Below are positions 3,825 through 64,000 of a stretch of DNA of 64,000 nucleotides, piece by piece; within the stretch, counting starts at the first letter, position 1, and each line of letters begins with the position of its first letter. The translations under genes were made by a program, and so were the position numbers. This DNA comes from Fragum whitleyi. Its lineage: Eukaryota; Mollusca; Bivalvia; Cardiida; Cardiidae. Where the stretch lies: the NCBI GenBank assembly GCA_948146395.1, contig OX411559.1:1802001-1866000 (forward strand), in the 5' to 3' direction. A model generated the notes under the pieces. The model was not told the DNA's origin. It saw nothing but the letters and a program-made list of their open reading frames with translations, and searched no databases.

Positions 3825-5211
3825 AACAAGAGCCGTCAGAGACGGATTATGCTCCCCGAATAAGGCATTGTCACAAAAACAAGAGCCATGTTGGACATGG
3901 ACATCCCCCGCCAAGAAAGCTTGATAGTTAACTGAAGCCTAATAGATAAAAGATTCTTTTGTACTGTCAAAGATTTGCCTCCAATAAAATCTAAGTAATA
4001 AAAATAACAAAGGGCAATAAATCCAAAATTATGCAAGCAAGAGTTGTAGTTCAGGTGTATTGCACTTCTCCTCCATGAGATCTATCCACCCATAAAGATT
4101 CAAGTTGATAGCTATTATACTTTAGGAGATATGCTCCAGACAAAATCTAAGTATCAAAAATAACAAAGAGCAACAATAACTCCAAAATTATGCAAACAAG
4201 AGTTGCAGTTCTTGTACACTGCACTTCTCCTCCATGAGATCTATCCACCCATAAAGTTTCAAGTTGATAGCTATTATACTTTAGGAGATATGCTCTGTGG
4301 TCAGATTGCAAGGACTCAAGTAAGGTGTTATCTTATACAGCAAACATAAAGGTAACAAACATTAAACCCCCTTTTTGCATGACATATTTTTAAACACAAA
4401 TTTCAAATAGTTTATGGTAAAGGGCATCTGATTTGCTACTGAAATGTGAAATTTCATCAAATTCTGAGCATAAGACTAGGAGAAATGAAAGAATAACTGT
4501 ATTTTACGTGCTAGCGTAACGGTAACAAACATTAAGCCCCCTTTTTCCATGATATATTTTTTTTTTACGTTAATTTCAAATTGTTCATAGTAAAGGGCAT
4601 CTGATTTGCTACTCAAATATGAAATTTCACTAAATTCTGACTGTTAGACTAGGAGAAACTTGGGAAAAATTGTTTTTTTACCCTAAGTCCCCTTTTCCCG
4701 TGACGAGGCCTCAAATCCATAAACCGTCACAGATGCAACAACACTATATCATAGGAAGTTCACATGGTAAGTTTCATTTGATTTGGCCCAAGGGTTATGG
4801 AGAAATAGGTGGGGACGGATGGACGGACGGAATAACTATTTTACATGCTAATGTAAAGGTAACAAACATTTAGCCCCCTTTTTCCATGATATATTTTTTA
4901 TGTTAATTTCAAATTGTTTATAGTAAAGAGCTTCTGATTTGCTACTCAAATATGAAATTTCACTAAATTCTGACAGACTAGGAGAAATTTGGGAAAAACT
5001 GTTTTTTACCCTAAGTCCCCTTTTCCTGTGACGAGGCCTCAAATCCAAAAACCGTCACAGATGCATCATCACTATATCATAGGGAGTTCTCATGGTGAGT
5101 TTCATTTGATTTGGCCCAAGGGTTATGGAGAAATAGGTGGGGATGGACGGAATTACGGACGGACGGACGGACGAAGCGGCGGCTATATGCTCTCCCTTCG
5201 GGGAGCATAAA
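3825..5211 (+). mobile_element. HINE/pearl-like element with ~330-bp core repeats
   Basis: The left end is AACAAGAG (3825-3832) followed by the perfect hairpin CCGTC-AGA-GACGG and attatgctccccgaa. The right end is ttcggggagcataa (5198-5211), the inverted partner of that motif. The interior holds about two full and one partial core units of 330-360 bp, each with acggtaacaaacattaagcc and ccctaagtccccttttccc. It ends in a (GACG)n tract at 5157-5174. A second AACAAGAG with hairpin CCATGT-TGG-ACATGG lies at 3878-3900 and suggests a nested copy. There is no protein; short frames repeat with the unit. Confidence 0.62.
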
Positions 5212-5515
5212 AACATGTCATTTACTTAAAGCCTATTTGAGATGATACAATTCTGTTCCTTGGAATGATTATAGATCCCATTAATATCTATCTACTGATA
5301 ACAAGGTCAAGGTCATTTTAGGAGGTCAAAGTCATCTGTCAAGGTCAAACTTCTGAATAAAATGGCCACTTACGGGGACATTAGTGTTAAACAAAAAAAA
5401 TCTTGTTTTTCAAAGATCTCAGAATCAAATATTGATGCTTCAATTTATGTATAATTCTAGATATTTCACCTAGCATTAATTGTTTTTGTGTTCAATTTAC
5501 TTATAGAAAATAATG

Positions 5516-5900
5516 CAGGGATCGACACTAACACCAGTCCTCTGGTCCAAAACCAGCGGGTTTTAGTGAGGAATTGTAGAAGTTACCATTTTGCAGGTCC
5601 TTCAGGCCTGTAAATAATAACATTGTTACTTTTTATTTGTCTACTTTCTTTTTTTAAATTGCCTTTCCGATACTTAAATTTGCATTACCCTAAAGGAAAC
5701 ATTGTTAAAAAAATTGCTTCTCACAAGCAATTTCTTCTTTTCTCACAATGTTTTCTCAACAAATTTCTCCTAAATATGAAGAAATAATTTTAGTTTTCCT
5801 AGAGGACCTGTTTTAATCGGGGAGGACCAGAGTCCGACCTGTAATATTAAGGGCTTAAAGGTCCCTCAGGATGATGGCAAAAAACAGTGTCAAACCCTTG
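5516..5900 (+). mobile_element. CAGGG-ended MITE, copy 1
   Basis: Inverted ends CAGGGATCGACACTAAC and the complement of GTGTCAAACCCTTG, flanked by an exact 5-bp duplication TAATG (5511-5515 and 5901-5905). The core at about 5710-5750 is the same AAATTGCTT..AAGCAATTT palindrome that sits in the TTAA-type MITEs. Non-coding. Confidence 0.65.
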
Positions 5901-5970
5901 TAATGTATAGGAAATAATGTTTGAAGGAAAGGATAGGATAATCCATTATTTCAGTGAATGAACAATAATG

Positions 5971-6044
5971 AATGGCTCAGCATGCAAAAGCTGTAACTGC
6001 CTATACACATAAAGGTAGTTCCAGGTGTTTCCCTCTGAGCCATC
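5971..6044 (+). repeat. Short foldback MITE (ATGGCTCAG hairpin), copy 1
   Basis: A ~74-bp hairpin with arms beginning ATGGCTCAGCATG and ending CTGAGCCAT. Other copies are at 7241-7312, 19404-19472 and 56515-56586, with a degenerate one at about 52990-53063. Confidence 0.6.
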
Positions 6045-6284
6045 AATTCTCTCATAGCTACTACTGCTTTTATACAGCCAAAAACATCAGGGTCTAAAAT
6101 TATAAAAACTGTTTATCGTTTGGACTGTTTAGCCTAGTGAATGAACAAAAAGTATTGAAAAAAACAAACTGGCATTTCACACTTGTTTAATTTAAATTGT
6201 TTCTAATATGAATAAAATGTTACCCCACATAAGGCTTTATTTAGTTAAAAAGGAAAATATAGTCTAACCCTTGTCATGCTGAAC

Positions 6285-6530
6285 CTGGGGCCCATTTTAC
6301 AAAACTTCTTGCGAAAAAAATTAATCCTAAGTCAAAATCACAAATTGTACCTGGTGTTTCATTCATTATTAGTTTCTGCCTTGCAATAACTCATTGGAAT
6401 TGTCTTAAGAAGATGATTTTAATGAGATGATGCATGGCAGAATTGTATATTTAGTAACTGCTGTAGAAGCAACTTTAATTTTTTACTTGCTCAAAAAATG
6501 ATTGTAAGATGTTTAGTAAAATAGGCCCCT
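6285..6530 (+). mobile_element. GGGRCCCRTTTTAC-ended MITE, copy 1
   Basis: Inverted ends ggggcccattttacaaaac and gtttagtaaaataggcccc. It is collinear with the copy at 62481-62714 (shared tcaaaatcacaaattgtacc and gcatggcagaatt). It contains the attggaattgtctt palindromic core. Non-coding. Confidence 0.6.
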
Positions 6531-7201: not shown

Positions 7202-7240
7202 ATTTAGTATTCTTCTCTGACGCAGAGAAAGTAAATATTG

Positions 7241-11876: not shown

Positions 11877-11977
11877 TGCCCTAAACATAATTTTTGTATG
11901 TTTAAACTAGTTTTTGGACAAAATATTGACAGAAACCCTGCAACGATATACAATTAATGACATCATTTAGAATGTGA

Positions 11978-15029: not shown

Positions 15030-18000
15030 CTTCAATAAATAACCAAGGCCAGAGATTAATCCTTTCCTGTTTTACCAAATTTTGGACCCGTCCAAATTCA
15101 AAGGTTTTGCAGACGACAATTAAAAGTGAATTTAATTTGAACAAGATGTGTTTGTGAAACACGAATTCCCCCGTAACAGCGATCTTTCGATAAGGCAAAG
15201 GTTAAGTTTTCGGGTTAAGTTTTCGGACAGACGGACGGTTGGACAGACAGACGGACAGACAGACAGACAGACAGAAAGACGGACATGAGTAAAACAATAT
15301 GCCCCCCATCTCTCGATTCCGGGGCATAAAAATAACCATTCAGTAGGGTAAAAAATAGTGTGGAAAAAGAAGAAATTGCTTGTCAAAAGCAATTTCTTCT
15401 TTTTTCACAATGTTTTCTCAATCATTAAATCACAGGCATGTAAAAAGCAGGGATTAAACAGCAAAGGGTTAAAGCAAGTATTTGCAATTAAAACAAGATG
15501 TGGTTGATACACTCAAATGCCCCCCACTTTTTTTCAAAACTTTGATCTTCACATATGACCTTTCTTCTTTTCATGCGACCTTGAACCTTATATCTCCAGA
15601 AAGACATCATAGAGGTTTGTCATTATGCCGAATATGAGGCTTGTATTTTCTATGGGCATGTCAAAAGTAATAGCAAATGTATGAAATTTAAGAAATTTAG
15701 ACAAACATGTAATTTTTTCCTCACAAACTATCAGAAGAAGTATCATGAAAATGGGACACTTAAACTTAATAAGAGCTTTTGTTACAAGTTTTTTTAGGTA
15801 GCCCATTGACAAAACGTTAAACCCTTCAATATGGTATTAAGCGATCATTTAGGGGACTGACCAAAATTAGTCGCTTATGGGAAACTTCACTAAATACAAT
15901 ATTTCATTATAAAGACAGGTCATTATTTTAGTTTATTTAGATCGTCTTAACCAATTCTATGATGACTTGAAATCGTCTATTTGACTGATTCCCAACAGTT
16001 CAAACAACATAAGATTAAAACAATAAATAATTTTCTGTTCAGAAATTCCACTTTTACAAAGACTTTGCTCACAGTGAAGGGACTTTTTATAATGGGCTTA
16101 ATAAAAGTTGTCGCTAAAAAAGGAGTGGTTGCTTAAGCAATATCAACTAAATAACAATCTTAAATTTACCCTGTGTATTAGGATAACTTGTATGTAGCCC
16201 ATCACTATCATCATAGTCCTCTTGGTGGTCAATGAAATCATTAAATCTTCTGGACTTCTCACTATCTTGGTAAATTGGTGTTTCTCTTTTCCTATTAAAA
16301 ACATTACATGAAGAATGAGAACGCAATTAGCTACATTGTGTTACTTCCCTTAAAATTAAATGTAGATTTAATCTCAAAACGGTGAACTAACGCCGCTTTC
16401 AACATTATTTCAGTTATATCGCGGCGGCTGGAGCACCTAACAATGGATTCCAGTTATTTCTCTCACCAGTACAACCATTACATCCTTTCTTAGCCTCCAG
16501 CTACTATCTCACATAGGTCTACGATTATCAACCCATTGGTGAGAGTCAAATTGTCGGAAAGAATGAGTGCCGCCGTCGGGGATCGAACCCGGGACCTCTA
16601 GAATGACAGTCCGTCGCACTACCAACTGCGCTATGACGGCGGCCCTCAACAAAGGACAATGAAGACCTTGAGATTGTAAGATGAACTGGAATATTGTATC
16701 ATTTCAATTGCCATACTTATATTCCTTTGGTTTCTACATCACTGTCATATCGAAAGTTTGCTGATTTTATTTATTGCTTGGGGTGTAACCCCACTTGCAA
16801 AAGTATTTTTAATATATTTTTAAAGCTAGTGTCCCTACCCATGTTTTTTTGCTGTTTTCCCCCTCAGTAAAACCACAATATTTCATCCAAGCCATCAGCT
16901 GCCCATCCAAAAGGCTCACACCTTATATCATTCTCTGAATTCTTCATTTAACAGAAATGATAATGGTCTTGTCCATATTTTTTTTGTACGATAAATACCT
17001 TTTCCTTGATTTTCCCTTTTTGTCCAGTATAGAAGCATCTGTTGTATACTGTCTGTCATCATAACCATCATCATCATCATCAACATGGCTTGTATTGTCA
17101 ACAAACTGACTCCATTTATTTTCTGATTCCTGGGAATTAAAGGCTACAAAACTAAATGCCATTTTCAAAGATTTGATAGATAACATATTTTATGTATAAT
17201 AATAGGCAAGTCCAAAAAGGGGCATAACTCTTACAGCAATCCATGTAGGGTTATCTCCCTTGATCGTATCATCAAAGACATGCCGAGTTTAAGGTACTTG
17301 ACCCAGAATAGTTCCACAACATTTCCCAAGTAATCAACAGTGTTTACTGAGGTTTCCTAATGATTTTCACAGGATGATGACAAGTTATTTTGTTTTATTT
17401 TTATCTTCAAATTTCTTTTAAGGAAATGTTCTTTCTGTATTAGTGCAGAAAATAGTTGCACACTCAATTTACAATAAGGATGTATGATTTAGAACTTTTT
17501 CTCTAAACTGCTGAATAGATACTGGTAAATCCCTGCATTCAAGATCAAAATATTTAAAGATAGCAACACCCTCAAATTTAATGTGTATGCGCATGTAAGG
17601 CAGTCTGTCGGAGTACCATTTTTATACGGCAAAAAGGGACATATTATAGGATCACACATGGCTTCCGGCTTCAATATCTTTATCCAGAGTATAGGTCTGT
17701 CCCATTTATGTTCAATTTACTTACAACTTGTCAGTCAGGTTCCTCTGATGATTATGGAGTGCAGTGCACAAGAACCATTACTCTACCTAGCTAATAATTT
17801 TTGAATTATGTGCCTTTGTTGTTTTTCATACTTTGGCATCAAGAATTGCCACAGGCGTACCTTGGTACAATTTGCCACCTTGTCAAATGTTTGCAAATGC
17901 TCTTGTACTCTGAACCTAGGGCATAATTGATTACCTGAACATTTTCAGGATAACACGTAACACAGTCATCAGAGGTATAATGGGAAGCCCCCTGTAGACC

Positions 18001-26755: not shown

Positions 26756-28342
26756 ATGCTGCCGGTCGAGGGCCCATCCCACATCAGACTACCAAAAGGG
26801 ATGGGGGTACGTTATCGCAACTACCACACAGCTAGAAATACCTTAAAAATTTTGTACACAAATGCAGATTGTCTTACCAATAAAATAGAAGAATTGAAGA
26901 CCTTTATCTCTTTGAAAAACCCTGACATTGTAGCTATAACAGAAATAAAACCAAAGAACAACATACTTGATCTCTCCGAAGCAAATTACATGGTAGAGGG
27001 CTACAATCATTATACCAACTTGGATACTGGAAAAAGAGGTGTAATAATCTACACTAAAGATAGCATCTTGGTTGATCGGGCGGCAATAATTAGTTCTGAA
27101 ATTGAATCTGTATGGATGAAAATAAAACTACTTAATAGGGACTCTCTTTTAATTGGATGTGTCTACAGAAGCCCAAATTCAAGTATAAATAGTTCATCTG
27201 AGCTTGCTAACATATTTGAGAGAGCGAACAATAGTGGTTGTTCACACATATGTATATTAGGTGACTTTGATTTTAAAGAAATAGACTGGAGAACATGTGA
27301 AACAAATGTTAGTGAATCACATCCAGCTTCTTTGTTTTTAGAGATGTTACAAGATAACTATTTAATGCAGCATGTAACAGAACCAACCAGATTCCATGAA
27401 GGTCAAACACCATCGTTAATTGATCTGGTCATTACAAATGAAGAACACATGATAAACAAAATTCAACACTTAACAAGTCTCGGAAAGAGCAATCATATAA
27501 TCCTGGAAATAGACTTTACTTGCTACACAGATGAAGTGGTTAAGACAACAAACATCAAACGTAATTACTTCAAAGGTGATTACCACAAAATTAGGAACGA
27601 ATTAAAGAGTATTACCTGGGATACTTTATTATCCATCCCAAGCGCTTCAGAATGTTGGAATGTCTTTGTCGATAAACTAAATTTAATAATTGAAGACAAC
27701 ATACCAGTGTACAGACACAGTCCAAAGTTCAGCCAGAAGCCCCCATACATTAACCAGGACACTCGTAAAGATCTCAAACAAAAACAACGCTCATGGTCCA
27801 AATATCTTCATTGTAAATCAACTGCAAACTATGAAAAATATAAAACTGCAAGAAACAAGGCTACAGAATCAATAAGAAAAGCCAAATACAACTACGAAAA
27901 GGACCTTACTCAAAATATTAACTCAAACAGCAAACTTTTCTGGAAATATGTTCGTTCACAAACCAAAACAAAGTCATCAATCTGTTCAATCAAAGATAAC
28001 AATGGACATTTTGTGGAATCAGATACTGAAAAAGCCAACATTTTCAACAGGTATTTTGCAAGTGTCTTTAAAGAGGATAACCTGGTTACCACCATGAACA
28101 TCGGGGAAAAACGAACAGAAAAAATCCTAGGTGATATCGAAATAAGTAACATGGATGTTATGAAAGCCCTAAACAGTTTAAAACCAAACAAATCCCCAGG
28201 TCCAGACAAACTACACCCAAAACTACTGTTAGAATGCAAGGAAGAACTTTGCTGCCCCCTTAAAGAAATATTCAACAAATCCCTAAGAAATGCAGAAGTC
28301 CCCAATCGATGGAAAAATGCAGATGTCGTCCCTATCTTTAAA
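26756..28342 (+). pseudogene. Retrotransposon ORF2, endonuclease and N-terminal RT part
   Basis: 529 codons. Residues ~30-260 form an exonuclease-endonuclease-phosphatase domain (LYTNADCLTNKIEEL, NPDIVAITE, GVIIYTKD, ILGDFDFKEIDW, SLIDLVIT, KSNHIILEIDF), which nicks target DNA. A linker with YEKDLTQNI..FWKYVRSQTK follows, then the start of the RT domain (LKPNKSPGPDKLHPKLL, WKNADVVPIFK). Two active-site positions differ from the usual: GDFD for GDFN, and SNH for SDH. The frame stops only because the SINE at 28343 interrupts it. Confidence 0.8.
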
Positions 28343-28621
28343 TGATTGATTGATTGAATGGAGTTTAACGCCGTTTTCAACATTATTTCAGTTATATCGC
28401 GGCGGCTGGAGCACCTAACAATGGATTCCTGGTATTTCTGTCACCAGTACAACCATCACATTCTTTCCTAGCCTCCAGCCACTATCTCACATAGGTCTAC
28501 GATTATCAACCGATTGGTGAGAGACAAATAGTCGGAAAGAATGAGTGCCGCTGTCGGGGATCGAACCCGCGAACTCTAGATTGACAGTCCGACGCGCTAC
28601 CAACTGCGCTATGACGGCGGC
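28343..28621 (-). mobile_element. tRNA-headed SINE, copy 2, with 14-bp target duplication
   Basis: 279 bp inserted into the RT frame. The duplicated target TCCCTATCTTTAAA is at 28329-28342 and 28622-28635. On the - strand the head carries A and B boxes (TAGCGCAGTTGGTAGCGC, GGGTTCGATCCCC), and the 3' tail is (CAAT)n at 28344-28357. This is the cleanest copy of the family and defines its ends. Confidence 0.9.
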
Positions 28622-28782: not shown

Positions 28783-30175
28783 CGAGGGTTGTCCCAAGAA
28801 TTCGTGAACTTTTACGATAACTTTTATTTGGAACGTCCGATAAAACTAAAAATTACCAGTAATGTGGACGAATCATTTTCCTTTATTCTGGTGTGACTAC
28901 AGATGGCTATTTTCAATACTCGCGAAGATATGAATTAAAACATAACACTAGTAAATGGGTATCGGCGCACGCTATTAACGTCGTTTTATAATACGTGAAA
29001 CGTCGTTTCAAAACTGAACCACTTACTATCAACATAGCGTTCTTTCCGGCCCTATATACTTGTTACAAAGAATAGATTTTTGTTGTGCATTCAATCAGAT
29101 GTTTGATTTCAAACCATTTTCCCCAATCTTTTACTTGGATACGCACTATCGTATTTTTTTAACCCGACAATGGGCGAATTGAATAAATGTTGATGTTTTT
29201 TTTTTTATATTGCAAATCGCTTCATCTTTAGACATTTCAAAATAGGAACTTTTCATGTTTTGTACGCACAGGAAATTAATATTTTGGTTTGTTTTGAATA
29301 CCTTAGTATTACACTACCACTACCTTAGTTCATCGAGATAGACCCACCAAAGAAATATAGGATTTCGTGGAAAACGCTTCCGAGTCCCATTTGCTGCCAA
29401 AAGTGCATGCATATTTCTTTAAAATCTCGATACCTATCGTTCATTTGCACGACTCATATCAGACTACACACTGCTGATTTACTTACATGTATTCGCGGTT
29501 TCTGTATCCCACCAGGCGTTCTGATTGACGTCGCCGAAAATGTCTTTTATTTATTTATCGACGCTTCTCGCACAAGTTCTTCCTAGCTTGATCTTGTTTT
29601 TCTGACATTCTTTATGTCAATTTCACTTTTACTCCTCGTTTATCCGTAAAAAAGTGTATGCGCCACAAATAGTTACGGTTATTCCTTGTTTCGAATTTTT
29701 TTATGGTCTGTATAGGGCTTATTTCGCGATTCAGACCTAATTATGAACGAATTTGTGCGCCGAGCGTTCCGTTGACGTCGCCATTTTCACGCCGTTTGAC
29801 TTGCACTCGGACAAAACAAAACGTCATAACTGCGCACTGCGTAATGTCATTTGTATGAAAATACACATACGTGAACTCCAGAATAATCTGCTTTCAGCAA
29901 TGGTTTTATATCAAACTCAGGGTGAATATTGAAATAAATGGCGTTCAAACTTCTACCATATAAGATTCGTAAGTTATAAATTTGACGTGCGCCGACTACC
30001 CCTACCGAATGTGTCTTTTAAAGCTTTATTTCTCAACATGACTATAACAAAATCGTAAAACCTTTACCAATCTATTGCAAATTAACGTGTGTTGTAAACT
30101 TAAGAGTTTTATTTAAATCGAACGCTGGATTTTTGAATAATCGAAAAAGTTCACGAATTTCTGGGACAACCCTCG
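28783..30175. mobile_element. 1.39-kb TA-flanked inverted-repeat element (mariner-like ends)
   Basis: The inverted ends start CGAGGGTTGTCCCA and continue to ATTCGTGAACTTTT, about 36 bp with a few mismatches. TA is present on both sides (28781-28782, 30176-30177). The size and CGAGGGTTGTCC ends suit mariner, but no frame over 60 codons lies inside and no DDE-type motif was recognised. I call it non-autonomous or fully decayed. A similar end word (acgagggatgatccagaag) lies at about 62889. Confidence 0.75.
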
Positions 30176-30177
30176 TA

Positions 30178-31460
30178 AAAGGGAAATCTTGCCAGTTACA
30201 GCTTTTGGAATCATTGGAGGACTGGTCTTCGTCAGTAGACAACTCTATTGAAACTGATGTCATATTTTATGACTTCAGTAAGGCATTTGACACTATCTCA
30301 CATAAAAAGTTGCTTGAGAAACTACAGACTTACGGCATAACTAACAACATATACCATTGGATAGAAAACTTCCTTCAAAATAGATACCAAGAAGTAATTG
30401 TCAACAACTGTAGATCAGAGAGGCAACGAGTCACTAGTGGAGTACCACAAGGAAGAGTATTGGGTCCCACCCTTTTCCTTATTTTTATTAATGACCTACC
30501 CGAAAAAAACAATACGAAGGTGAAGTTGTTTGCAGACGACACAAAAACTTACGTAGAATTGAAGAGTGAAGATGACCTTGTCAACTTACAAAAAACAACA
30601 GATACATTCTGCAAATGGTCAAAAACTTGGGGGCTTGACTTTAACTCAAACAAGTGCAAAAGACTACGTATTGGAAAAAGTAATCCAACAGGAAAATACC
30701 TTTTGACAATAAAAGAAAATAAAAAAGAAGAAATCATAAACGTTACCGAAGAAAAAGACTTAGGAGTAATAATCGACAAAAACCTACACTTCAACACCCA
30801 CATACAGTCCAAAATTATAAAAGCAAACCAGAACCTTGGAATCATAAGAAGGAACTTCAAATGCATTGACAAAACCATATTTCTTCACCTATACAAAGCT
30901 CTTGTTAGACCCCACCTTGAATATGCCAGCCCTGTATGGTCGCCATATCTAAAAAAAAAAAAAACATAAAAAAGCCATTGAGGATGTACAACGTAGGGCC
31001 ACAAAAATTATACCGAGTTTAAAAACATTAAGCTACAACCAACGACTTCTTAGCCTGGGTTTACCATCATTAGAATACAGGAGAGAAAGAGCTGACATCA
31101 TCCAGGTGTACAAACTGGTCCACAGAATCGATAAAACTAACACAAAGTTGATCAATGTGGCAGAAAAAAAATCAATACAAGGGGAAATACATACAAAATT
31201 TTCAAAAAAAGGTTCAATACAGAAGCAAGAAAAAATTCTTTCAGTAATCGGGTAGTTGATACTTGGAATTCTTTAAGCAACGATGTAGTAACATCCCCAA
31301 ATATTAATACGTTCAAAAGTAGACTAAACAACCATTGGAAAAACCACTATCTAAAGTTCACTCCAAGCTGCTACAGCACCTATACAAACAGTCAACAAAC
31401 ACGAAGAGATGGACCTCAGAGACTTACCCTCGGTCCAAGGAAGGTAAATTAAGGTAAATT
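30178..31460 (+). pseudogene. Retrotransposon RT, catalytic block and C-terminus
   Basis: The frame resumes directly after the TA site. It shows FYDFSKAFDTISHKKLL, TSGVPQGRVLGPTLF and FADD (30529-30540, catalytic aspartates), then the thumb region (EEKDLGVIIDKNL, YKALVRPHLEYASPVWSPY). The long frame ends at 30969 in a run of A; past it, in another frame, IEDVQRRATK and LGLPSLEYRRERAD follow, so one indel broke it. The block ends in the tandem tail at 31441-31460. Confidence 0.8.
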
Positions 31461-31564: not shown

Positions 31565-34024
<2,460 letters not shown>

Positions 34025-35325: not shown

Positions 35326-35607
35326 AACAAGAGCACCGCCTACGGGTGCCTACGCTCCGCTGTTGAGTTCTGGATGGTGGAAAAAATCTAGGTCGAAAAA
35401 GGGACATAATTTGCAGAAAATTCATCAAGAATTATCCCCCTTGACAATATAGGTTGCTCGTTTGATGATAGCCAAGTTTCAAGTGAATGACTTCAGTAGA
35501 AACAGAGATATCACAAAATGTTAAAGTTTTCGCACGACGACGACGACGACGACATTAAGGCTGTAGCAATACCTCGGTTATTCTCCGATAAAATGCCGAG
35601 CTAAAAA
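35326..35607 (+). mobile_element. Short complete HINE-like element without core repeats
   Basis: The left end is AACAAGAG, then hairpin GCACC-GCCTACG-GGTGC and ctacgctccgctg. A (CGA)n run lies at 35533-35552. The right end is gctgtagcaatacctcgg .. atgccgagctaaaa, the inverse of the module at 9409. At ~282 bp it shows both termini of the family close together. Confidence 0.6.
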
Positions 35608-41123: not shown

Positions 41124-42482
41124 AACAAGAGCTTCGCAGAGCGGCGCATATATGCCCGATGGGGCTTGTCAGTAACCTTGGCTTGTCAGTAACATAAGCT
41201 TGAATGATAGCTAGAAAAATTGCAGACAGACAGACGACTGGGGCCATAACATAGTATGACCCTTTGAGTGTTAATTGAAAATGGTTTAATGCACAACTAT
41301 ACGCCAAAAAGTCATTTTGCAAGTTTCAGTTCATTCCAATTCAAAGTGTGACCAGGTGCTCATAAAAGAAATATAGTGAAATACAAACAATTCAAGGGCA
41401 GATAATACAAGAAAGACCTAAGCTTTTTTAATTTCTGAAGTCTTAAGTTCAACCAAATATCAGGGTTACATTGTGGCAAGATTCATTTCAATCAATTTGT
41501 AGGAGTTGTGCACACACACAGAAAAAAATCTGTAATTTTAAACTATTTTGTGAAGTAAAGGGCAGATAAATCAGGAACTTCTTAACATGTGAAAAATATT
41601 TAGTCCTAAGCACAAATAGACAACCTACAGAGTCATTGTGGCAAGTTTCCTTTTATTCCCATCCAAAATGTAGGAGAAAGTGAGCCGACATTTTTTATTT
41701 AATTTTATTTCATTCAACTCAAGGGCAGATAATTCGAGATTTTTCAGGAATGACTGGAGAATTTTGAATTGACAAGTCTTATGCACAACTAGACATCATA
41801 GAGAGTAATTGTGTCTAGTTTCAGCTCATTTCAATTGATAGTAAAGGAGCTGCACACAAAAAACAGTGATTTTTGTTTAATTCAAGGGCAGATAATTCAA
41901 CATTTCTCTGGAATGACTGGAGCCATTTGAATTTCAAAGGTCTTTACACAACTAGACATCATAGAGAGTAATTGTGTCTTGAACTCTTTCAGTGCAATTG
42001 GTTTTTGGGAGAGTTCTGCGCACAAAATATAGTGATCAAAATATAGTGATTTTCGTTAAATTCAAGGGCAGATAATTCAAGATTTCACAGGAATGACTGG
42101 AGCGATTTGAATTTCAAAGGTCTATGCACAACTAGACATAACAGGGAGTAATTGTGTTTAGTTTCAGCTCATTCCCATTGATAGTTTAGGAGGAGTTGCG
42201 CACACAAAAAACAGTGATTTTCGTTAAATTCAAGGGCAGATAATTCAAGATTTCTCAGGAATGACTGGAGCGATTTGAATTTCAAAGGTCTTATGCACAA
42301 CTAGACATGATAGAGAGTAATTGTGCCAAGTTTCAGCTCATTCCCATGGATAGTTTAGGAGAAGTTGAGCACACAAAAATTGCTAACGGACGGCCAGACA
42401 GACGGACAGACAGACGGCCAGACAGATTGACAGACGGACGGACGACCGGGGCCAAAACATAATACGACCCTTCGGGCGTATG
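41124..42482 (+). mobile_element. HINE/pearl-like element with six ~165-bp core repeats
   Basis: The left end is AACAAGAG and a short stem TCGC-AGA-GCGG, then catatatgcccga. The core unit word aagggcagataattcaaga recurs near 41396, 41560, 41721, 41885, 42065 and 42232. A (GACGGACAGACG)n tract at 42388-42445 precedes the right end cttcgggcgtatg, the inverse of the left catatatgcccga. Non-coding. Confidence 0.65.
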
Positions 42483-43639
42483 AAAATGAAAATAAATAAA
42501 GACATCGTCCGAGACATAATGTGGATAATTTCATTATTTTTTGACAAGGGTTGACTACTTTAAAGTAGTTCAATACATAGAATACAATATATCTTATAAC
42601 TTTACTAATACCCGTATGATAACACCCAATATGATATGTTTAAAACATTGACATAATGCGTATATTTTTAGAAACTTGCATTTCTATCAGAAACATCGAC
42701 GAAAAGAAGGCAAACAGAGGTTATAAGATAAATATAATACGTACTTGGTGTATTGTATGAAAAAATCTCTTACAAGGTTGTGGGAATTGATGATTGTCCC
42801 GGCAGAGCCTCGAAAATTATCAATTCCCCCAACACTAAGTACTTATTTATATAAAGTTAGGTTTATAGTCTGTTTCTATGCCAGGCATACTAGGTGGGCG
42901 ACACCTCAAGGGTTTCGCAGAAGAGGAATGAAGAGAAGATGAATAAAATGTCCATTTTGCGGTTGATCTTACTCATAACTGTTTGCGAAAAAAGGGTAAA
43001 CGAAAAAGAAAAAACGATAAAAGGACCATTTAATCCTTTTTTAAATGTTTGATCGATATGCTTTATATTAAATTGGACGAACAAAATGGATTTCCTCAAG
43101 TGTTGGAGCTAAGAAAGAAAATATAGCGTTTGGCTTTCAATGGATCAAGGATTTATTAACCGTGCAAGAAAATTAAAAAAAATGCCATCCCATTTCTTTC
43201 ACGCAAAAAATAACACGAAATGCGGAAATTGAAGGATTGTTTCTTAAAAGCGCGTCATTTCGCACGAGATTGCATGGCAACGTCGATCATGACGTCATAT
43301 GTATAATGTCTTGCTTAGATGAGAAATATACGCATTCAGACCTAATTTTCTCTTCAATACGAATTTTCCCAGACAAACCAACTGGCTGTGGACCTAGATG
43401 GAGAGCTCCTCTACACGATTCTGTAACTTTTATCAAACTTTGTCGTTTAGATTTTTCTGTCCTCAAATCGCGGCTATATCCGGCAAAATCGTATGTTTTA
43501 TCGGTGTTAAACATTTCGTTCCGAAAGAATCGAACTAAGTTCAATTCATTCTTCTCTTCATTCCTCTATTCAACCGACTTCACACTTTAAACCCCGATCA
43601 TCGAATTGCAAGTCGGCTGTTAACAAACGGCGCTCATCG
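42483..43639. other. Intergenic; candidate promoter motifs near 43.27 kb
   Basis: A repeat of 40370-40640 is partly present again at 42600-42840 (cttataactttactaata .. aatacgtacttggtgtattg), so an older duplication is visible. 43268-43281 is X-box-like and 43289-43298 is a perfect ATGACGTCAT. The frame of 117 codons (43237-43590) has no recognised domain. Confidence 0.35.
43268..43298 (+). promoter_or_regulatory. X-box-like motif plus CRE
   Basis: GATTGCATGGCAAC has a perfect right half-site for RFX factors but two mismatches on the left. ATGACGTCAT follows 7 bp later. It lies ~1.7 kb upstream of the Pro/Tyr-rich gene. Function is conjectural. Confidence 0.2.
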
Positions 43640-57800: not shown

Positions 57801-60800
57801 AAAAACGAAAAAGGTAAGCTAGGGGGGGGGGAGTTACAGTAGTAGTACACTACACTCCTTAAATATGAAAAGAATATTAATTCTGGGTTTCAAGTCAATC
57901 AGACATAAGGGGACAGTGTTATGCTCCAGACTAAGAAGTGGACCTCACCCTCTTGCAAGATGTCACAGGTGATTCAACAATATGTCCATGTCTTTTGACA
58001 TGCATTTAAAAATGATACATGTACTTTCATTAATCCTATATTGGGGCTTTCGAATGAGTACCCACAAAAAAGGCTTTCAACAAGAAATAAAGAATTTAAG
58101 ACTTGTTTAATTATCTCAAAGCTACTGATAGAAAGGCGCGGGGGGGGGGGGGGTATTTAGGGATTCAGATCAAAGTAATTGAATAACTATGGTACAAACT
58201 CTATGTCCATGGTATTCATTGGATTTGTCTCATTGTAACATAGGCGTATCTACGCACTCAGACGGCGACAACTAAAAAAATAAACAGGATAAAGGCGATA
58301 TGTGTACTGTGACAAAAGATAAATGCCCTCTATGCAATTCTTTTTTTACGATTTGAGCGTTGGTGAATAATCAAAATATTGTAACTACAGCTTGAATAAG
58401 CTGTAGTTTCCATGTTATGATCATTCAACTGCGATATTTTTCAACAGATTGTATCTTTTACGCACTTGCATAAATTGCGTAATGGGAGTTATGCCCTTGT
58501 TGATACAACTTAGGGTTCCATTGAGAAATAATGATTTATGTCTGTCTTTACAACCTCTTATCTATACCTCTGAATAACTACAGTCAAACCTGGTCTTCCG
58601 GCCACCTCTATTCAGCGTGCACCTGTCTTTAACGTGCAGTTTAATGTCCCCCCGAACTGATATACTCTTAATTTTACCTGTACTCAACAAGCACCTGTGA
58701 AACGCACGCAACGATCGCTAAATTCATGTCCTATCATTCATAAAACCTGAGATTTGCGGCCACTCAAAGAATAAAGGGCAATTGTCGCAGTTATACCTGC
58801 GGCCAATTAAAGATCTTCGCCAGTCGAAAGACTAAAGTGATTTTCACGGATTCGTGATTCTTACAGTCAACTTTTGTTTTTTCGAGTTATCTATTCAAGT
58901 GTCATAAATCAATTATACATACACAAAGACACGTGTTAATAGTTAACAGGTGGTGACAAACATTGAAGTTTCTTTACAAACAATTAATATTGATAAAATT
59001 GTCATTGTACACAAACTATTTTAAGACATTTGGTTCAGATTTTTATTGATTTATTTTTTAGTCCAGTAGAGATCGAAAGTACTGTTAATACTTTATTCAA
59101 AGGTTGGCTTTCGTATTTAATTCAGCCAGAAACATTTGGGAAAAAATGCAGTTTTTGAGGTCTGTTATGGGTAATAGAAACTTGACTGCTTGATGAGGAC
59201 TGATTCTTTCCAATTTTTTGATTGGCAATTATAGATTTTGTTTCAGAGATGGCTTTTGCATTTGAATGTAGCGGATAATTGGTGATAAATTTGTAGAATT
59301 GCCTTCCGATGATTGAATAGATTCAAAATATTATTGTTTTTATATTGTTTTTATTGGTCATTGGAGATTTAGAAAAAAAGAAGCCATTTTCTCACAATCT
59401 TAATATAAATGTCAATGTTAATAGGAGAAATAAGATGTAAATATTTTATGAATATAATCATAAGTTGTTTTTCCTTCTCTGTGCCTTTTCCTTGATCAAA
59501 ACGATGATGATGTACCATTAACCCCCCCCCCCCCTCCCCACCCCTGATATCAGGTCGACCTGTATTAAGCAAGCACCTGTCTTAAGCAAGCGATTTTGGC
59601 ATATCCCTTGACCGCTTGCTTAAGACAGGTTAGACTGTAATAGACTTTAAAAAAGATTGTAACAGGATAAATAGAATAGATGATAGGTGCCTTGAGATGG
59701 AAAAGTTTATAGGGCTTGGCTGCGGAATTTATCCGGTTCGCCTTAAAATTAAATTAAATTCATACGCCTTGCCCAATAAACTTTTCCATCTCAAGTCACC
59801 AACCATCTATTCTCTATATATCTGCCACAAGGCAACAACTCTAATTTAACTGCCATCCTTTTGTAACTTGATGAATATGCCGAACAAGGGTACCATGGTC
59901 ACAATATTATGGTGCTTTGGAATTTAACACAAAAATCACTTTTTAGGTGATACACAGAAAATATGTTTATGGTCACATGATGAGGAATTTTCTATGAAAA
60001 TGTCATACATATCTATCCATGCTTGAAGTAGGATTTTTATTAACAAGAAATGGATGAAAAGACTGTCAGCCTGATTACCAATAAGCAACTTGCATGACCA
60101 TTAAAGATAGAGCTGAAAGAGTGGGTAATGTAACCTACCTTGACTTGTTTGACACTTTCACTGCGTTGAATGTAGCATCGTAGGTAATTCTGAATTTCTT
60201 GTACAAACTGTTTCATTTTTCCTTCATCTACAAAATAAAAACATTTTGATAACAAAGTGCATAGCAAGTAGATGGCAAGCTCGATTGCATGTCCTTTTTT
60301 TTCATGAAAAAGTCTATCATTCTTACAAAAGTGCTTTTAGAGCTCTTCTCATTCATAGCATGGATTTATCATATGATTAAGAATACATATGCCAAGTTTC
60401 AAGCCAATATCTAAATAAAGTAGATCTGTTGCAAAGCTGACTTATATCCCTCATTTCTGACAGGGCTTTCAGACAAGCTTCGATAGTGACTTTGACCTTA
60501 GAGACCTCAAAACAATAGGACACCTCCTTTGGTTATGTGCAAGGATTTTATAAAGTTTCATGGTTCTAGGTAATTCTTAAGTGAGTCTGGAAACAAAACA
60601 AGAGTTGTCAGTGGACAACGTGGCTCTCCTAAACCACTGCTTGTCACAAACAGCACTTGACCAAAGATCTAAGTTCAAGGTTAATATTTTTTGTTAAAGT
60701 CCATGATCTAATATATATCAGTCTGATTTAGAAATAAGAAATAAAGGTAAAATGGCCCCAGGTATAAGCACTCAGAAAATATAAGCAAGGTTCAATTTTC

Positions 60801-62441
60801 TTGTTAAAGTTTTTATAAGTACATAAAAAGTCAAGGTTAAATTATCAAGGACCTTGGTTACTGGTGAAAGCCTATCACTTGGTGAATTTGTGCATGAGAT
60901 TATTTTGGGTTAAAGCTTTTCTAAGTCAATAAGAGGTCAAGGTCAAAATGTCAAGGCACTTGGTCTCTGGTGTAAGCATATCACCTTGTGAGTGCATATA
61001 TGAAGTAATGATGTCCATAGGTAAAGAATTCAGAAAAAATGAGCAAAGTTAAAGTTTTTTGGTTAAAGTATTTTTGGTTAAAGATTTTGTTTAAAGTTTT
61101 TTAAAAGGGTCAACGTCACCGTCTCAAGGTCATTTTGACAGGGGTGCTTGTTCTAAATGAAAGCCTATAACCGAATGAGTGTTTATGTGAAATATAAAGC
61201 CTCTAGGAAATAATAAACCTTAACCTAATGCAGACGCCGACACCAATGCTGACGCCGACATCTGAGGATATGACAAGTCTTTCGAGACTTTTGTCCGAGG
61301 CAAGCTAAAAAAAAAAGGCCTACAGACAGACAGACAAACAGACAGTCGGACAGACTGACAGGTGGATGAAACTAATATACCTCTTCAGGGTTCTAGCCTG
61401 AAATCAACACAAAGGGGTCCAAAGGACTCAATCTTGAGGGTCCTTTCCTTTCTTAAAGTTTGGGAGTCCCTACTTAAGATGTAGACTTTTTCATTGAGGT
61501 TATAACCTTACATACGGTCAATTTAGAGGTATTCCCTGCTTAATGGTATGATGGAAATTGATGAAAGTATATGAACATTTTGGACTCAATTTCAGGAAAG
61601 AAGCAGTCTTCATTTCTTAACTGAAATTGATCCTCAAAGAGTCTATGGGACTCACATCACATGGTTTTGAGGGTCCTGGCTACTAATTTCCGCATCTCAG
61701 ATGCGTCCATTAAAACCCTTCCTCTTTCAGAAGTCTACTTAGTAGGTGTATGTGAGGGTATAACCCAGATATTGTTAAATTTCAAGTTTATCATTCCGTC
61801 AACACTTACATCAATGCCTACACTCACTGAACACAGTTCATATAAAGCAAAGCTATCCTAAAGAGTATTCTTCTATTCATGTAAATGAATTTTACCATTT
61901 TCAACAAAAAGTATGCTGAATGTTAATTTTGTTTTCAAATACAATTTACCATCGTTCACATTATAATGAGTCTAGAGTTGGGATGAGTAGAAATTTTGTA
62001 CCCTTGTACCCGAGATCTTGTTACCCGCAGGTACTCAAATACCAAATGGTTGCTGTCCATATATCATGTATTGATTTTATCAACTATATACATAGGTGGG
62101 TCAAGAATGTCTGTAAAGGGGGTAACATACAAACTCTGACATGGTTTTAAGGGATGCAGGTGTCGCGAGTCTGTGACTAGCAAATATGTAGCCAGGACTC
62201 TCAAGACAAGCTCATTTAAGTCCATAGGACCATCCGGAAATCAAATTTAGAAAAGAATCCAAAGCTCACCTAAATGTGTTGTCTCAAACTGTTTTGTGGG
62301 TATAAAGGGAGGTAAATTATGTTGACCAAGCCTGTGTCCATCACTTGTCTTTTTGATCTCAACTTGAAAACAGCTGTCATTGCTGGGGCCCTGGCTCTTG
62401 TACAGTGGGTCAAACTTGAGGATTATGCTGTCTTCTATTTC
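54719..62441 (-). CDS. CENPO: Centromere protein O (CENP-O) homologue, 3' part, four exons
   Basis: Exons 62441-62270, 60227-60139, 57470-57311 and 54843-54719 join in phase (1, 0, 1) to 546 nt, encoding the last 181 residues. Order and spacing match the C-terminal two thirds of vertebrate CENP-O: DSCFQVEIKKT..LPPFIPTKQF, then QFVQEIQNYLRCYIQR, then LPITYVKFEVN.. VIILHYDLSKFTPRMV, then LSQWKTKFIQQDLYTAFTEM. CENP-O is a tandem-RWD subunit of the inner-kinetochore CCAN and pairs with CENP-P. Upstream exons for the N-terminal coiled coil were not found before the window edge. Introns hold several MITEs and two tandem-core elements. Sequence identity to vertebrates is low, so the call rests on pattern and length. 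Confidence 0.6.
54942..55203. mobile_element. CAGAGGTGCGTTC-ended MITE (hAT-like ends)
   Basis: Inverted ends CAGAGGTGCGTTCATTAGGG and TCTAACGAACGCACCTCTG, ~25-bp arms. The flanking 8-mers ggcaagaa and gtcaaatt agree at only 4 of 8 positions, so the duplication is decayed or absent. It lies in the last CENPO intron. Confidence 0.6.
55289..55322. repeat. Perfect 12-bp-arm hairpin
   Basis: GACCCTAGTCAG and CTGACTAGGGTC enclose actgcgcaga, itself containing a self-complementary ctgcgcag. It is related in layout to the palindromes at 44925, 48021 and 52015. Confidence 0.7.
55466..56460 (+). mobile_element. Decayed HINE-like element carrying a nested MITE
   Basis: The head is agtaagag with imperfect stem ctgtc-aga-ggatag, then tgatgctcc. 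The end is a (GACAGATGGACA)n tract at about 56380-56408 followed by atatagccccaatg..ggggtatat. The MITE at 56003-56343 sits inside. It lies in the last CENPO intron. Confidence 0.45.
56003..56343 (+). mobile_element. TA-flanked CAGT-ended MITE, best copy
   Basis: 341 bp, TA at 56001-56002 and 56344-56345. It starts CAGTAAAACTTGTATCAAGC and ends gttgctcaaagaagatagac tg. The middle contains caatcgtctcattgagacga, the shared palindromic core. Non-coding. Confidence 0.62.
56515..56586 (+). repeat. Short foldback MITE (ATGGCTCAG hairpin), copy
   Basis: Near-perfect hairpin: atggcttagtgcaaaatgg against its complement, with ggttgtaactccct arms and a taaacatata loop. It lies in the last CENPO intron. 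Confidence 0.66.
57311..57470 (-). CDS. CENPO: CENPO internal exon
   Basis: 160 nt. The acceptor is ttattgttgtag|gttgaa and the donor gacag|gtgagt. It encodes LPITYVKFEVNINQDWPN and VVIILHYDLSKFTPRMV, aligned with the second RWD region of CENP-O. Confidence 0.65.
57523..57743 (+). mobile_element. TTAA-flanked MITE, copy 4
   Basis: TTAA at 57519-57522 and 57744-57747. The ends are CCCTTTGCTGTTT and AAACAGGAAAGGA. The length of 221 bp equals copy 2. It lies ~50 bp 5' of the CENPO exon at 57470, inside an intron. Confidence 0.76.
58020..58580. repeat. Intronic repeats: GGAATCGTCTC-type fragments and an ACTACAGCTT foldback
   Basis: 58030-58250 carries words of the 2030-2490 repeat (gaatgagtacccacaa, gaaataaagaatttaagac). 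A G16 run lies at 58139. 58310-58500 is an inverted copy of the 49690-49860 foldback, with perfect core actacagcttgaataagctg at 58384-58407. Confidence 0.45.
58581..59637. mobile_element. 1.06-kb TA-flanked element with CAGTCAAACCTG ends
   Basis: TA at 58579-58580 and 59638-59639. The left end CAGTCAAACCTGGTCTTCCG and the right end (read inverted) CAGTCTAACCTGTCTTAAGC are similar over ~20 bp. The interior has repeated aagcaagcacctgt words near the right end and a C-run at 59521-59537, but no transposase. Non-autonomous, of pogo/Tc1-like type by its ends. Confidence 0.6.
60139..60227 (-). CDS. CENPO: CENPO internal exon
   Basis: 89 nt. The acceptor is ttttattttgtag|atgaag and the donor gtcaag|gtaggt. 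It encodes EGKMKQFVQEIQNYLRCYIQ and RSESVKQVK, matching the helical ..FLFSLCEYLNAY..-type segment of CENP-O. Confidence 0.62.
60597..61310 (+). mobile_element. HINE-like element, GTTGTC hairpin head
   Basis: The head is AACAAGAG with the perfect stem GTTGTC-AGTG-GACAAC (60604-60619), then gtggctctcc. The core has loose ~140-bp repeats (tcaaggtcaaaatgtcaagg, ggtgtaagcatatcacc). The right end is caagtctttcgagacttttg and gaggcaagctaaaa, a hairpin plus TTTTAGCT inverted. It lies in a CENPO intron. A (GACA)n tract follows at 61322-61365. Confidence 0.6.
61366..62269. other. CENPO intron, little recognised
   Basis: A+T-rich sequence with short frames of 66-76 codons that lack splice or domain support. 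Confidence 0.3.
62270..62441 (-). CDS. CENPO: CENPO exon, first one in the window
   Basis: 172 nt. The acceptor is atatccccag|gaaata and the donor tttag|gtgagc. It encodes EIEDSIILKFDPLYKSQGP, then NDSCFQVEIKKTSDG and LPPFIPTKQFETTHL, corresponding to the first RWD region. Confidence 0.62.
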
Positions 62442-62480
62442 CTGGGGATATTTTAAACTGACACCTGTATAAGTATAGAC

Positions 62481-62714
62481 CAGGGACCCGTTTTACTAAA
62501 CTTCTTACGAAAAAATTAATAGCAAGTCAAAATCACAAATCGTACCTGGTGTTTTCATTTAAAGTTAGATTTTGCCTTGCAATATCTTATCGGAATCGTC
62601 TTTAGATGAGATACTGCATGGCAGAATTCAACATTCCAGAACTAATCTACAAGCAAATTAAATTTTTGTCTTGCGCAAAAAATGATCGTAAGACGTTTAG
62701 TGAAACGGGACCCT
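62481..62714 (+). mobile_element. CAGGGACCCG-ended MITE, copy 2
   Basis: Inverted ends CAGGGACCCGTTTTACTAAA and TTTAGTGAAACGGGACCCTG. It is collinear with 6285-6530, including the core cggaatcgtctttagatgag. No clear target duplication. Confidence 0.66.
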
Positions 62715-63259
62715 GAGAAACAACTTAATAACAAATATATAGGTGCAGCTAGTAGTCATGTTTCATGAAGTTGTATTTTTCACATTGCCCGAATTTTAAA
62801 AACAACTCATATGTAAACATATAAAATCAACGGTATGGTTAGACTATAAGTTTAAAGAGATCTAAATAAATAATTTCTCATCAATTACGAGGGATGATCC
62901 AGAAGTTCGTAAAATTTGCTAATAACTTTGGCATTTCTGGCTTGTTTAGTATATAATTTGGTGTATGTGCAGTTTAGTAACTGCAGAGTTCATAAATAGT
63001 ATTATTTTTGCAGAACTATCTTTAGCAGCCAACGGATACATTACCATAGTAACGTATGTATGCTTAGGCGGGGGAGCATGAAAAAATATTGAAAATCTGT
63101 TAAATAAATCAAGTTTACTGTAAGTTTTCTGAAACTGTAGTTGAAAATCCTTGGCTAAATTAAATAAGACGCTTAAATAACAATATTTGTTATATCTAAG
63201 AGCTTGTTTTGGAGACTTTTACGGACACAGAATATTTTTATAACATAGACTATTTGAGA
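62715..63259. other. Upstream CENPO intron or flank
   Basis: tacgagggatgatccagaag at about 62887 resembles the mariner-like end of the 28783 element, but no partner end was found. No CENPO 5' exon was recognised. Confidence 0.35.
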
Positions 63260-64000
63260 AACAAGAGGGCCATAGTGGCCCTTAATCGCTCACCTGAATT
63301 AACAATCTTAAAATGTTTTTCTAAGATTTGACCCCGTGACCTAGTTTTCGACCCCACTTGACCAAATTTCAAACTTGTTCGAGATTTCATCAAGATAATC
63401 ATTCTGACCAATTTTCAGGTTGATTGGGGAAAAAAAATATGGCCTCTAAATGTCCACAAGGTTTTTCTAAGATTTGACCCTGTGACCTAGTTTTTGACCC
63501 CACTTGACCCAATTTTGAACTTGTCCAAGATTTCATCAAGACAATCATTCTGACCAAATTTCAGGTTGATTGGGCTATAAATATGGCCTCTAAATGTCCA
63601 CAAGGTTTTTCTAAGATTTGACCCTGTGACCTAGTTTTTGACCCCCACTTGACCCAATTTAAAACTTTTCTGAGATTTCATCAAGACAATCATTCTGACC
63701 AATTTTCAGGTTGATCGGGCTAAAAATATGGCCTCTAGAGTGTCCACAAGGTTTTCTAAGATTTGACCCTGTGACCTTGTTTTTGAACCCACTTGACCCA
63801 ATTTTGAACTTGTCCAAGATTTCATCAAGATAATCATTCTGACCAATTTTCAGGTTGATTGGGCTAAAAATATGGCCTCTAGAGTGTCCACAAGATTTTT
63901 CTAAGATTTGACCCCTTGACCTAGTTTTTGACCCCACTTGACCCAATTTCGAAGTTGTACGAGATTTCATCAAGATAATCATCCTGACCAATTTTCAGGT
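63260..64000 (+). mobile_element. HINE/pearl-like element with ~145-bp core repeats, runs off the window
   Basis: The head is AACAAGAG with the perfect hairpin GGGCCA-TAG-TGGCCC (63267-63281), then ttaatcgctcacctg. Five core units, each with ctaagatttgaccc and caattttcaggttgatt, begin near 63321, 63467, 63611, 63756 and 63901 (spacing 144-146 bp). The open frame on the - strand is the repeat translated. Confidence 0.72.

What the first reader, a model, noticed from the sequence alone, without database searches (positions are those of the whole stretch)
3825..63281. AACAAGA(G/T) followed by a hairpin whose stem sequence changes but pairing is kept
At six places the word AACAAGAG or AACAAGAT is followed at once by a perfect hairpin: 3833 CCGTC-AGA-GACGG; 3886 CCATGT-TGG-ACATGG; 15148 GTGTTT-GTG-AAACAC; 35333 GCACC-N7-GGTGC; 60604 GTTGTC-AGTG-GACAAC; 63267 GGGCCA-TAG-TGGCCC. 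A weaker one lies at 41132 (TCGC-AGA-GCGG). No two stems share sequence, so pairing, not sequence, is conserved: covariation at a transposon terminus. In most copies the hairpin is followed by a GCTCNCC-like word. This is what a structure-recognised rolling-circle terminator or a transcribed RNA hairpin would look like.
Basis: partly seen in the sequence, partly recalled or inferred. Interest (0 to 1): 0.75.

Follow-up and report, generated by a model that had tools for sequence, protein, structure and literature searches.

The report
Hairpin ends of bivalve rolling-circle transposons
The repeated word followed by different hairpins is the tail end of a very common class of rolling-circle jumping genes in what appears to be a bivalve genome, where the folded shape rather than its letters is kept; tails of this kind are already known from fruit flies and oysters.

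Summary
The seven named sites exist; pairing beats chance in the window (7 of 19 word sites, background 4.9%) and in 20 new 10-kb stretches of the same 1.22-Gb genome (11 of 36, background 4.7%). Where a second copy was in hand, homology starts at the word and stops outside it, so the word is an element end. On the other strand the elements are HINEs, non-autonomous Helentrons: 5' TTTTT + subTIR, microsatellite, satellite-like repeats, 3' subTIR, palindrome, CTCTTGTT, T-rich target. Two of four sampled candidate autonomous Helentrons end in this hairpin + CTCTTGTT. Likely mechanism: a structure-read terminator of rolling-circle transposition (inferred). Stems are fixed within families and differ between them. 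Stem covariation was already reported for Drosophila DINE-1 (PMC2374699), and Helraiser tolerates a swapped stem (PMC4778049): a new member of a known kind. Less ordinary is a family, including window 3824-5214, with two tandem 3' ends 53 bp apart; in the two copies read only the outer end matches the 5' subTIR and only it is the border.

The parts
3824..5214 (-). complete HINE (non-autonomous Helentron) with two tandem 3' ends; 5' end at 5214, 3' end at 3825
   Evidence: 93.2% identical over 1426 bp to a copy in L164, similarity stopping at both borders; 14/14 subTIR
3825..3832 (-). 3' terminal word, CTCTTGTT on the element strand (outer end)
3833..3845 (-). 3' palindrome CCGTC-AGA-GACGG (outer end)
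   Evidence: the 33-mer of word, hairpin and subTIR start has 988 perfect copies in the genome
3847..3860 (-). 3' subTIR TTATGCTCCCCGAA
   Evidence: exact inverse of 5197-5210
3878..3912 (-). inner, passed-over 3' end: word 3878-3885, palindrome CCATGT-TGG-ACATGG 3886-3900, own subTIR-like ACATCCCCCGCC
   Evidence: 23-mer of word and hairpin has 2377 perfect copies; no inverse partner above null downstream
3971..5173 (-). tandem central repeats (3971-5151) and, by eye, GACG-type microsatellite (to 5173)
   Evidence: for the repeats; sequence
5197..5210 (-). 5' subTIR TTCGGGGAGCATAA, with GCTCTCCC inverted repeat at 5189-5196 beside it
15140..15332 (-). short HINE of the GTGTTT family: AACAAGAT, palindrome 15148-15162, GACA microsatellite 15226-15285, 5' end CCGGGGCATAAAAA at 15319 by eye
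   Evidence: similarity to L155 and L168 starts at the word; subTIR pairing not above null
15492..15514 (-). decayed 3' end of the GTGTTT family
   Evidence: similarity to L168 starts 2 bp outside the word; no perfect stem
35326..35349 (-). 3' end of the CACC family: word, palindrome GCACC-N7-GGTGC; (CGA)n near 35534; possible 5' end GCCGAGCTAAAAA near 35595 by eye
   Evidence: similarity to L167, L163, L161 starts within 2 bp of the word; subTIR pairing not above null
41124..42483 (-). HINE-like element with decayed hairpin, 180-bp repeats 41708-42379, GACGGACA microsatellite 42389-42443, 5' subTIR CCCTTCGGGCGTAT 42468-42481
   Evidence: subTIR score 18 against null 95th percentile 17; no second copy among held sites
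60597..60619 (-). 3' end: word, palindrome GTTGTC-AGTG-GACAAC; ACAG microsatellite 61322-61361; 5' end not found
   Evidence: no subTIR above null; no second copy among held sites
63260..64000 (-). 3' part of a HINE of the GCTCACCT family: word, palindrome AGGGCCA-TAG-TGGCCCT 63266-63282, subTIR TCGCTCACCTG 63286-63296, 145-bp repeats from 63315, running off the window
   Evidence: 38 homologous sites, 34 starting at 98-101 where 101 is the word's first base; pattern AACAAGAGN{8,24}TCGCTCACCTG has 17,177 genome matches

Best explanation
Each AACAAGA[GT]-hairpin is the 3' end of a HINE, the non-autonomous derivative of an endonuclease-bearing Helentron in a bivalve-like genome, written on the opposite strand: 5'-TTTTT-subTIR-inverted repeat-GTCC-type microsatellite-satellite-like repeats-3' subTIR-palindrome-CTCTTGTT-3', inserted in T-rich DNA. 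Mechanism: a Rep-PIF1 helicase-endonuclease protein starts at the 5' end, peels off one strand, and stops where the single strand folds into the hairpin next to CTCTTGTT; the strand is cut there. Shown here: element borders for the families with a second copy in hand, subTIR pairs for some families, pairing of changing stems, and Rep-helicase elements with the same 3' end. Inferred: termination by the hairpin, from Helraiser experiments. Each family keeps its own stem; between families, and in small steps inside one family, stems change with pairing kept, because shape and not letters is read.
For: Similarity stops at the word: 623 of 766 in-register aligned pairs among 100 word sites start at positions 98-101, where 101 is the word's first base (a few pairs come from overlapping loci, and only pairs in register within 6 bp and starting by position 130 were counted); two full copies share 1426 bp and no alignment outside. 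14/14 subTIR at 3825-5214. 19 of 46 rows (about 42 distinct sites; not all had 1.6 kb to search) of the GCTCACCT family show within 1.6 kb the 5' end ...AGGTGAGC-AAA..., with stems GGACCA, GGGCCA or GGACCC. Microsatellites and 145-180-bp repeats lie inside elements. Partner: L175 encodes PIF1 (6e-23) and Exo_endo_phos (4e-8), in the same reading frame as a Helitron_like_N match with a 2628-aa open frame (the 1.4 kb between was not read), and the element ends 209 bp after the stop codon in CTCAGGTGAGCGA-CCTA-GGGCC-AAC-GGCCC-TCTTGTT; L177 has the same plan, its endonuclease end recognised by eye. Covariation: 11 double-change cells and the covariation score reached by 0 of 500 shuffles, slid controls 22-50% paired against 93.6%; arm-exchange test. 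A at -1 in 28 of 42 flanks, that is T after the 3' end, base frequency 0.32. Papers, passages read: PMC4067079, PMC7492417, PMC2374699, PMC4778049.
Against: Two of four sampled Rep-bearing lineages (L176, L178) show no CTCTTGTT in the 900 bp fetched; the L176 lineage ends in another palindrome. SubTIR pairs beat the null at 2 of 8 window sites only. Two hairpin sites of the window, 41124 and 60597, had no second copy among the held sites. No GGGCC-GTT-stem site showed the 5' end. Two of the five covariation measures were reached by some shuffles (pairs with double change 43 of 500, further pair types 15 of 500). Partners with the CCGTC, GTGTTT, CACC or TTGTC stems were not found; the 5' ends of L175 and L177 were not read. 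Termination was not tested in this system.
Confidence: 0.92

Rival explanations
1. The hairpin acts in RNA: a transcribed element whose RNA hairpin serves processing, reverse transcription or 3'-end formation (SINE-like).
For: Stem covariation alone cannot tell DNA from RNA.
Against: No Rfam family at the sites at gathering thresholds; the elements with the same 3' end encode Rep, helicase and endonuclease rather than reverse transcriptase; subTIRs and T-rich target fit Helentrons.
Confidence: 0.03
2. Cut-and-paste MITE with inverted repeats; the hairpin is only a by-product of the terminal repeats.
For: Inverse repeats exist at both ends.
Against: The repeats are subterminal and the palindrome lies outside the 3' subTIR at one end only; Rep-PIF1-endonuclease elements share the 3' end.
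Confidence: 0.02
3. Stems change as a block by template-directed copying of one arm from the other (palindrome correction), not by step-wise compensatory change.
For: Stems of unlike families share no letters while the word stays fixed.
Against: Inside the GCTCACCT family the changes are single pairs with half-way forms: pair 10-20 A-T 13, G-C 10, G.T 3, other 3; the imperfect stem GGACCC-TGA-GGGCCC is repeated (8 of 100 listed copies; also in L155 and L174).
Confidence: 0.12
4. Chance: A-rich words near chance palindromes.
For: 12 of the 19 word sites in the window show no such stem, about the number of words expected by chance.
Against: Replicate stretches, arm-exchange permutations and genome-wide counts with zero in the reversed-pattern controls.
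Confidence: 0.01

Closest known systems
HINE / Cg_HINE elements of the Pacific oyster (PMC7492417, passages read)
   Same: 5' subTIR, adjoining inverted repeat, GTCY-type microsatellite, satellite-like repeats, 3' subTIR, 3' palindrome, T-rich target, abundant in a bivalve
   Different: a conserved CTCTTGTT end and a tandem double 3' end are not mentioned in the passages read; the terms CTTGTT and AACAAG do not occur in its main text, but figures and supplements were not seen
DINE-1 / INE-1 of Drosophila (PMC2374699, passages read)
   Same: subTIRs, microsatellite, central repeats, TT target, 3' stem-loop whose stem sequence differs among species with compensatory change, proposed as a rolling-circle terminator
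   Different: there the stems were compared between species; here several families with unlike stems coexist in one genome
Helentrons (PMC4067079, passages read)
   Same: Rep-helicase with C-terminal endonuclease, subTIRs, 3' palindrome, non-autonomous derivatives sharing the ends
   Different: other hosts; the palindrome there lies 8 to 35 bp from the 3' end in the mite families, here directly against an 8-bp terminal word
Helraiser / canonical Helitrons (PMC4778049, passages read)
   Same: 3' hairpin as transposition terminator; a foreign stem with the own loop kept about 90% activity; read-through makes new 3' ends
   Different: canonical ends are 5'-TC and CTAG-3' with the hairpin 11 nt inside; here the hairpin abuts CTCTTGTT and there are subTIRs

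Membership tests
Helentron / HINE | subterminal inverted repeats of 11-15 bp | tested here: met
   14/14 at 3825-5214; 41124 just above null; 6 of 8 window sites not above null; inverse 5' end in 19 of 46 rows of the GCTCACCT family
Helentron / HINE | palindrome near the 3' end, outside the 3' subTIR | tested here: met
Helentron / HINE | central satellite-like repeats and short microsatellite | tested here: met
Helentron / HINE | insertion in T-rich or TT sites | tested here: met
   A at -1 in 28 of 42 flanks; run of A after the 5' subTIR, partly required by the search pattern, and in the two full copies
Helentron / HINE | no target-site duplication (empty sites) | not tested
   no empty site was searched for
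Helentron / HINE | autonomous partner with Rep, helicase and endonuclease and the same ends | tested here: met
   3' end shared by L175 and L177, 2 of 4 sampled lineages; helicase and endonuclease by Pfam for L175 only, endonuclease of L177 by eye; the 5' ends and Rep catalytic residues were not examined
Canonical Helitron (Helitron1) | 5'-TC and 3'-CTRR with hairpin about 11 nt inside | tested here: not met
   ends are TTTTT+subTIR and CTCTTGTT directly after the hairpin
Rolling-circle terminator (function) | hairpin directs 3' end formation | not testable with these tools
   inferred from PMC4778049
Structured RNA | match to a known RNA family at the sites | tested here: not met
   (gathering thresholds)

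The most novel reading that the evidence does not exclude
The double-ended family is a natural test of how a Helentron picks its 3' end: many copies carry a complete inner end (hairpin + CTCTTGTT) that the machinery passes over, going on 53 bp to the end whose subTIR matches the 5' end. This would mean that hairpin + CTCTTGTT is not enough, and that agreement of the 5' and 3' subTIRs chooses the terminator, with the stem free to drift. The passing-over was read in two copies; that it is general is inferred from counts (26 of 39 perfect outer ends on C1 have a perfect inner one).
Probability: 0.35. Interest if true: 0.5.

Novelty: new member of a known kind. Interest (0 to 1): 0.3.

Why it matters
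It shows, inside one genome and with thousands of copies, that a rolling-circle transposon end is kept by shape while its stem letters change, and it ties the non-autonomous elements to Rep-helicase elements with the same end. The double-ended family offers a way to ask what besides the hairpin defines a Helentron end, which bears on how these elements capture neighbouring DNA.

Tried and rejected
Paper searches for the word itself and for longer family strings showed no mobile-element paper (30 of 1,629 listed; 30 of 31 listed). MFE z-scores hardly discriminated. An unbiased tally of words before hairpins was swamped by another repeat. I considered a MITE, a SINE-like RNA element and chance (see rivals). 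Whether the inner hairpin CCATGT-TGG-ACATGG also serves as an end on its own is open: 1100 of 2377 perfect copies have the intact tandem context, 26 of 39 perfect outer ends on C1 have a perfect inner one but only 26 of 100 perfect inner ones have a perfect outer one; divergence of old copies could explain part of this. A test of which strand is read, by counting half-way stem forms, did not complete. The host species is not established: size and 19 or more large contigs and best named protein relatives point to a bivalve, no more.
Full report
What was checked. The window belongs to a genome of 1,224,646,155 bases in 38 contigs and lies at C17:1802001-1866000. All seven sites of the finding exist; the weak one starts at 41134, not 41132. 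In the window 7 of 19 AACAAGA[GT] sites carry a perfect stem of at least 5 bp next to the word against 4.87% of sampled positions (p 2e-5); in twenty new 10-kb stretches 11 of 36 against 4.67% (p 5e-7). The G form carries the signal (10 of 22); the T form gives 1 of 14. Seven of eight control words were not significant; the near variant AGCAAGAG gave 3 of 5. When the halves of 27 distinct sites are exchanged, 11 in-cis stems fall to a mean of 1.6, never above 8 in 20,000 permutations. The 27 were made distinct by the 7 nt after the word, so some are still relatives.

The word is a border. Among 100 word sites in held DNA, 766 pairs are homologous in register (start by position 130, offset at most 6) and 623 of them begin at positions 98-101, 101 being the first base of the word (a few pairs come from overlapping loci). 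This is so for the GTGTTT family (2 of 2 partners of 15140), the CACC family (3 of 3 within 2 bp) and the GCTCACCT family (34 of 38). The four hairpin-less or chance sites looked at (4195, 38838, 40944, 51604) have no partner, but neither have two of the hairpin sites, 41124 and 60597. For the inner site 3878 the similarity runs on outward, through the tandem outer end. The complete element 3824-5214 has a copy in L164, 93.2% identical over 1426 bp, the alignment stopping at the outer word and at the run of A behind the 5' subTIR.

Anatomy. Read on the minus strand, 3824-5214 runs: TTTTTATGCTCCCCGAA (5' subTIR), GGGAGAGC inverted repeat, GTCC-type microsatellite by eye, repeats, 3' subTIR TTCGGGGAGCATAA (14/14), palindrome CCGTC-TCT-GACGG, CTCTTGTT. 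The GCTCACCT family, to which 63260 belongs, has the 5' end TTTTTAGCTCACCTGAGC...; it was found within 1.6 kb at 19 of 46 rows (about 42 distinct sites, not all with 1.6 kb to search), with 3' stems GGACCA, GGGCCA or GGACCC and the same 5' end; no GGGCC-GTT site showed it. SubTIR pairing was above the null at only 2 of 8 window sites; the others may be cut, decayed or, for 63260, run off the window. The base outside the 3' end is A (T on the element strand) in 28 of 42 flanks, base frequency 0.32.

The Rep-bearing partner. Pfam Helitron_like_N gave 150 matches in the genome, from the 150 scored of 260 candidates, with open frames up to 2628 aa; the 14 control genomes gave none. I read the 3' side of four lineages. 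In L175 the frame holds PIF1 (6e-23) and Exo_endo_phos (4e-8); it is in the same reading frame as the Helitron_like_N match 1.4 kb upstream, which has the 2628-aa open frame, but the stretch between was not read. The element ends 209 bp after the stop codon in CTCAGGTGAGCGA-CCTA-GGGCC-AAC-GGCCC-TCTTGTT. L177 has the same plan with GGGCC-AAT-GGCCC, 406 bp after its stop; its endonuclease end was recognised by eye, not by Pfam. L176 and L178 have no CTCTTGTT in 900 bp. Two copies of the L176 lineage are identical for 317 bp and part directly after the palindromic stretch ATACCAACCCATTAATATGGGTAGGTAT, so that lineage has another kind of end. The end of the L178 lineage was not reached (two copies identical over 900 bp). 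The best named relatives of the L175 protein are from Ruditapes philippinarum (65% identity over the whole query), Pecten maximus (49%) and Mercenaria mercenaria (66% over 67% of the query), so the host is most likely a bivalve; the species is not established.

Covariation. In the GCTCACCT family (17,177 genome matches, reversed-pattern control 0) the 29 distinct ends of 37 nt among 100 listed (15 of other length dropped) keep 93.6% of cells paired, with 11 double changes; 0 of 500 shuffles reach the covariation score, the cells paired or the double-change cells, while 43 and 15 of 500 reach the two measures that count pairs and pair types; slid structures stay at 22-50% paired. Pair 10-20 is A-T 13, G-C 10, G.T 3, other 3. 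An imperfect stem, GGACCC-TGA-GGGCCC, recurs: 8 of 100 listed copies. On the element strand its mismatch is a G.T wobble. This is one event, noted as a hint that the CTCTTGTT strand is the one that folds.

Double 3' end. The window element and its L164 copy each hold two complete 3' ends 53 bp apart. Only the outer one has the subTIR of the 5' end (for the window; the same letters at both ends of the L164 copy), and only the outer one is the border. Genome-wide the outer end (33-mer) has 988 perfect copies, the inner 23-mer 2377, and the inner one with its tandem context 1100; reversed controls are 0. On C1 up to 43 Mb, 26 of 39 perfect outer ends have a perfect inner one, 25 at exactly 53 bp and one at 327, and 26 of 100 perfect inner ones have a perfect outer one. 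The arrangement could have arisen by insertion of one element near the end of another or by read-through to a second end; in either case it has since been copied many times as a unit.

Mechanism. The best-supported account is the Helentron one: initiation at the 5' end, strand displacement by Rep-PIF1, arrest and cutting where the displaced strand folds at the 3' palindrome beside CTCTTGTT. In Helraiser (PMC4778049, passages read) the hairpin is the terminator, a foreign stem with the own loop kept about 90% activity, a construct with changed loop and loop-closing pair behaved like hairpin deletion, and bypass transduces flanking DNA. That explains why stems can drift while pairing stays. It is inferred, not shown, for this host. 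Loops also vary between the families here, which the Helraiser loop result would not have led one to expect.

What is known. [quoted passage not shown] Thomas and colleagues 2014 (PMC4067079, passages) defined the structure of Helentrons and HINEs; the oyster paper (PMC7492417, passages) describes the same anatomy in a bivalve. PMC10294476 (passages) reports a mean of 5.9% rolling-circle content in the bivalve context. Searches for Helitron with hairpin and compensatory, and for Helentron with palindrome and termini, listed five papers each; I did not see a conserved CTCTTGTT end or a tandem double 3' end in the passages read. This is no proof that they are unpublished, since figures, supplements and most subscription papers were not seen.

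Verdict.

Noticed in passing
window about 1276-1315, 1756-1795, 5713-5750, 15368-15402: Another dispersed repeat with a little-changing long palindrome (GAAGAAATTGCTT...AAGCAATTTCTTC); words of this kind top the tally of all hairpins of the window.
   Followed up: no
window 33730-34024: A perfect GATA array of about 74 units.
   Followed up: no
window 16568-16640 (-) and 28546-28618 (-): Two Rfam tRNA matches, 37.5 and 39.6 bits; the second lies about 200 bp after a retrotransposon endonuclease frame.
   Followed up: no
window 26756-28345 and 30133-30969: Non-LTR-type retrotransposon frames: endonuclease (6.6e-15) and reverse transcriptase (1e-24).
   Followed up: no
L176 and L179, first 317 bases: A Helentron lineage with an open frame of 2508 aa whose two read copies are identical up to a terminal palindrome and then part: a different 3' end and probably recent activity.
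   Followed up: partly
L175:2412 onward: What looks like a second element's 5' end (TTTTTAGCTCACC...AGGTGAGCT, GTCC microsatellite) abuts the 3' end of the Rep-bearing Helentron: insertion right at the T-rich border.
   Followed up: no
G000:C1:34470934-34489958 and G000:C1:21077709-21078719: Six double-ended copies in a row at 2.6-4.4 kb spacing, and three inner ends at exactly 494-bp spacing: tandem multiplication of element parts.
   Followed up: no
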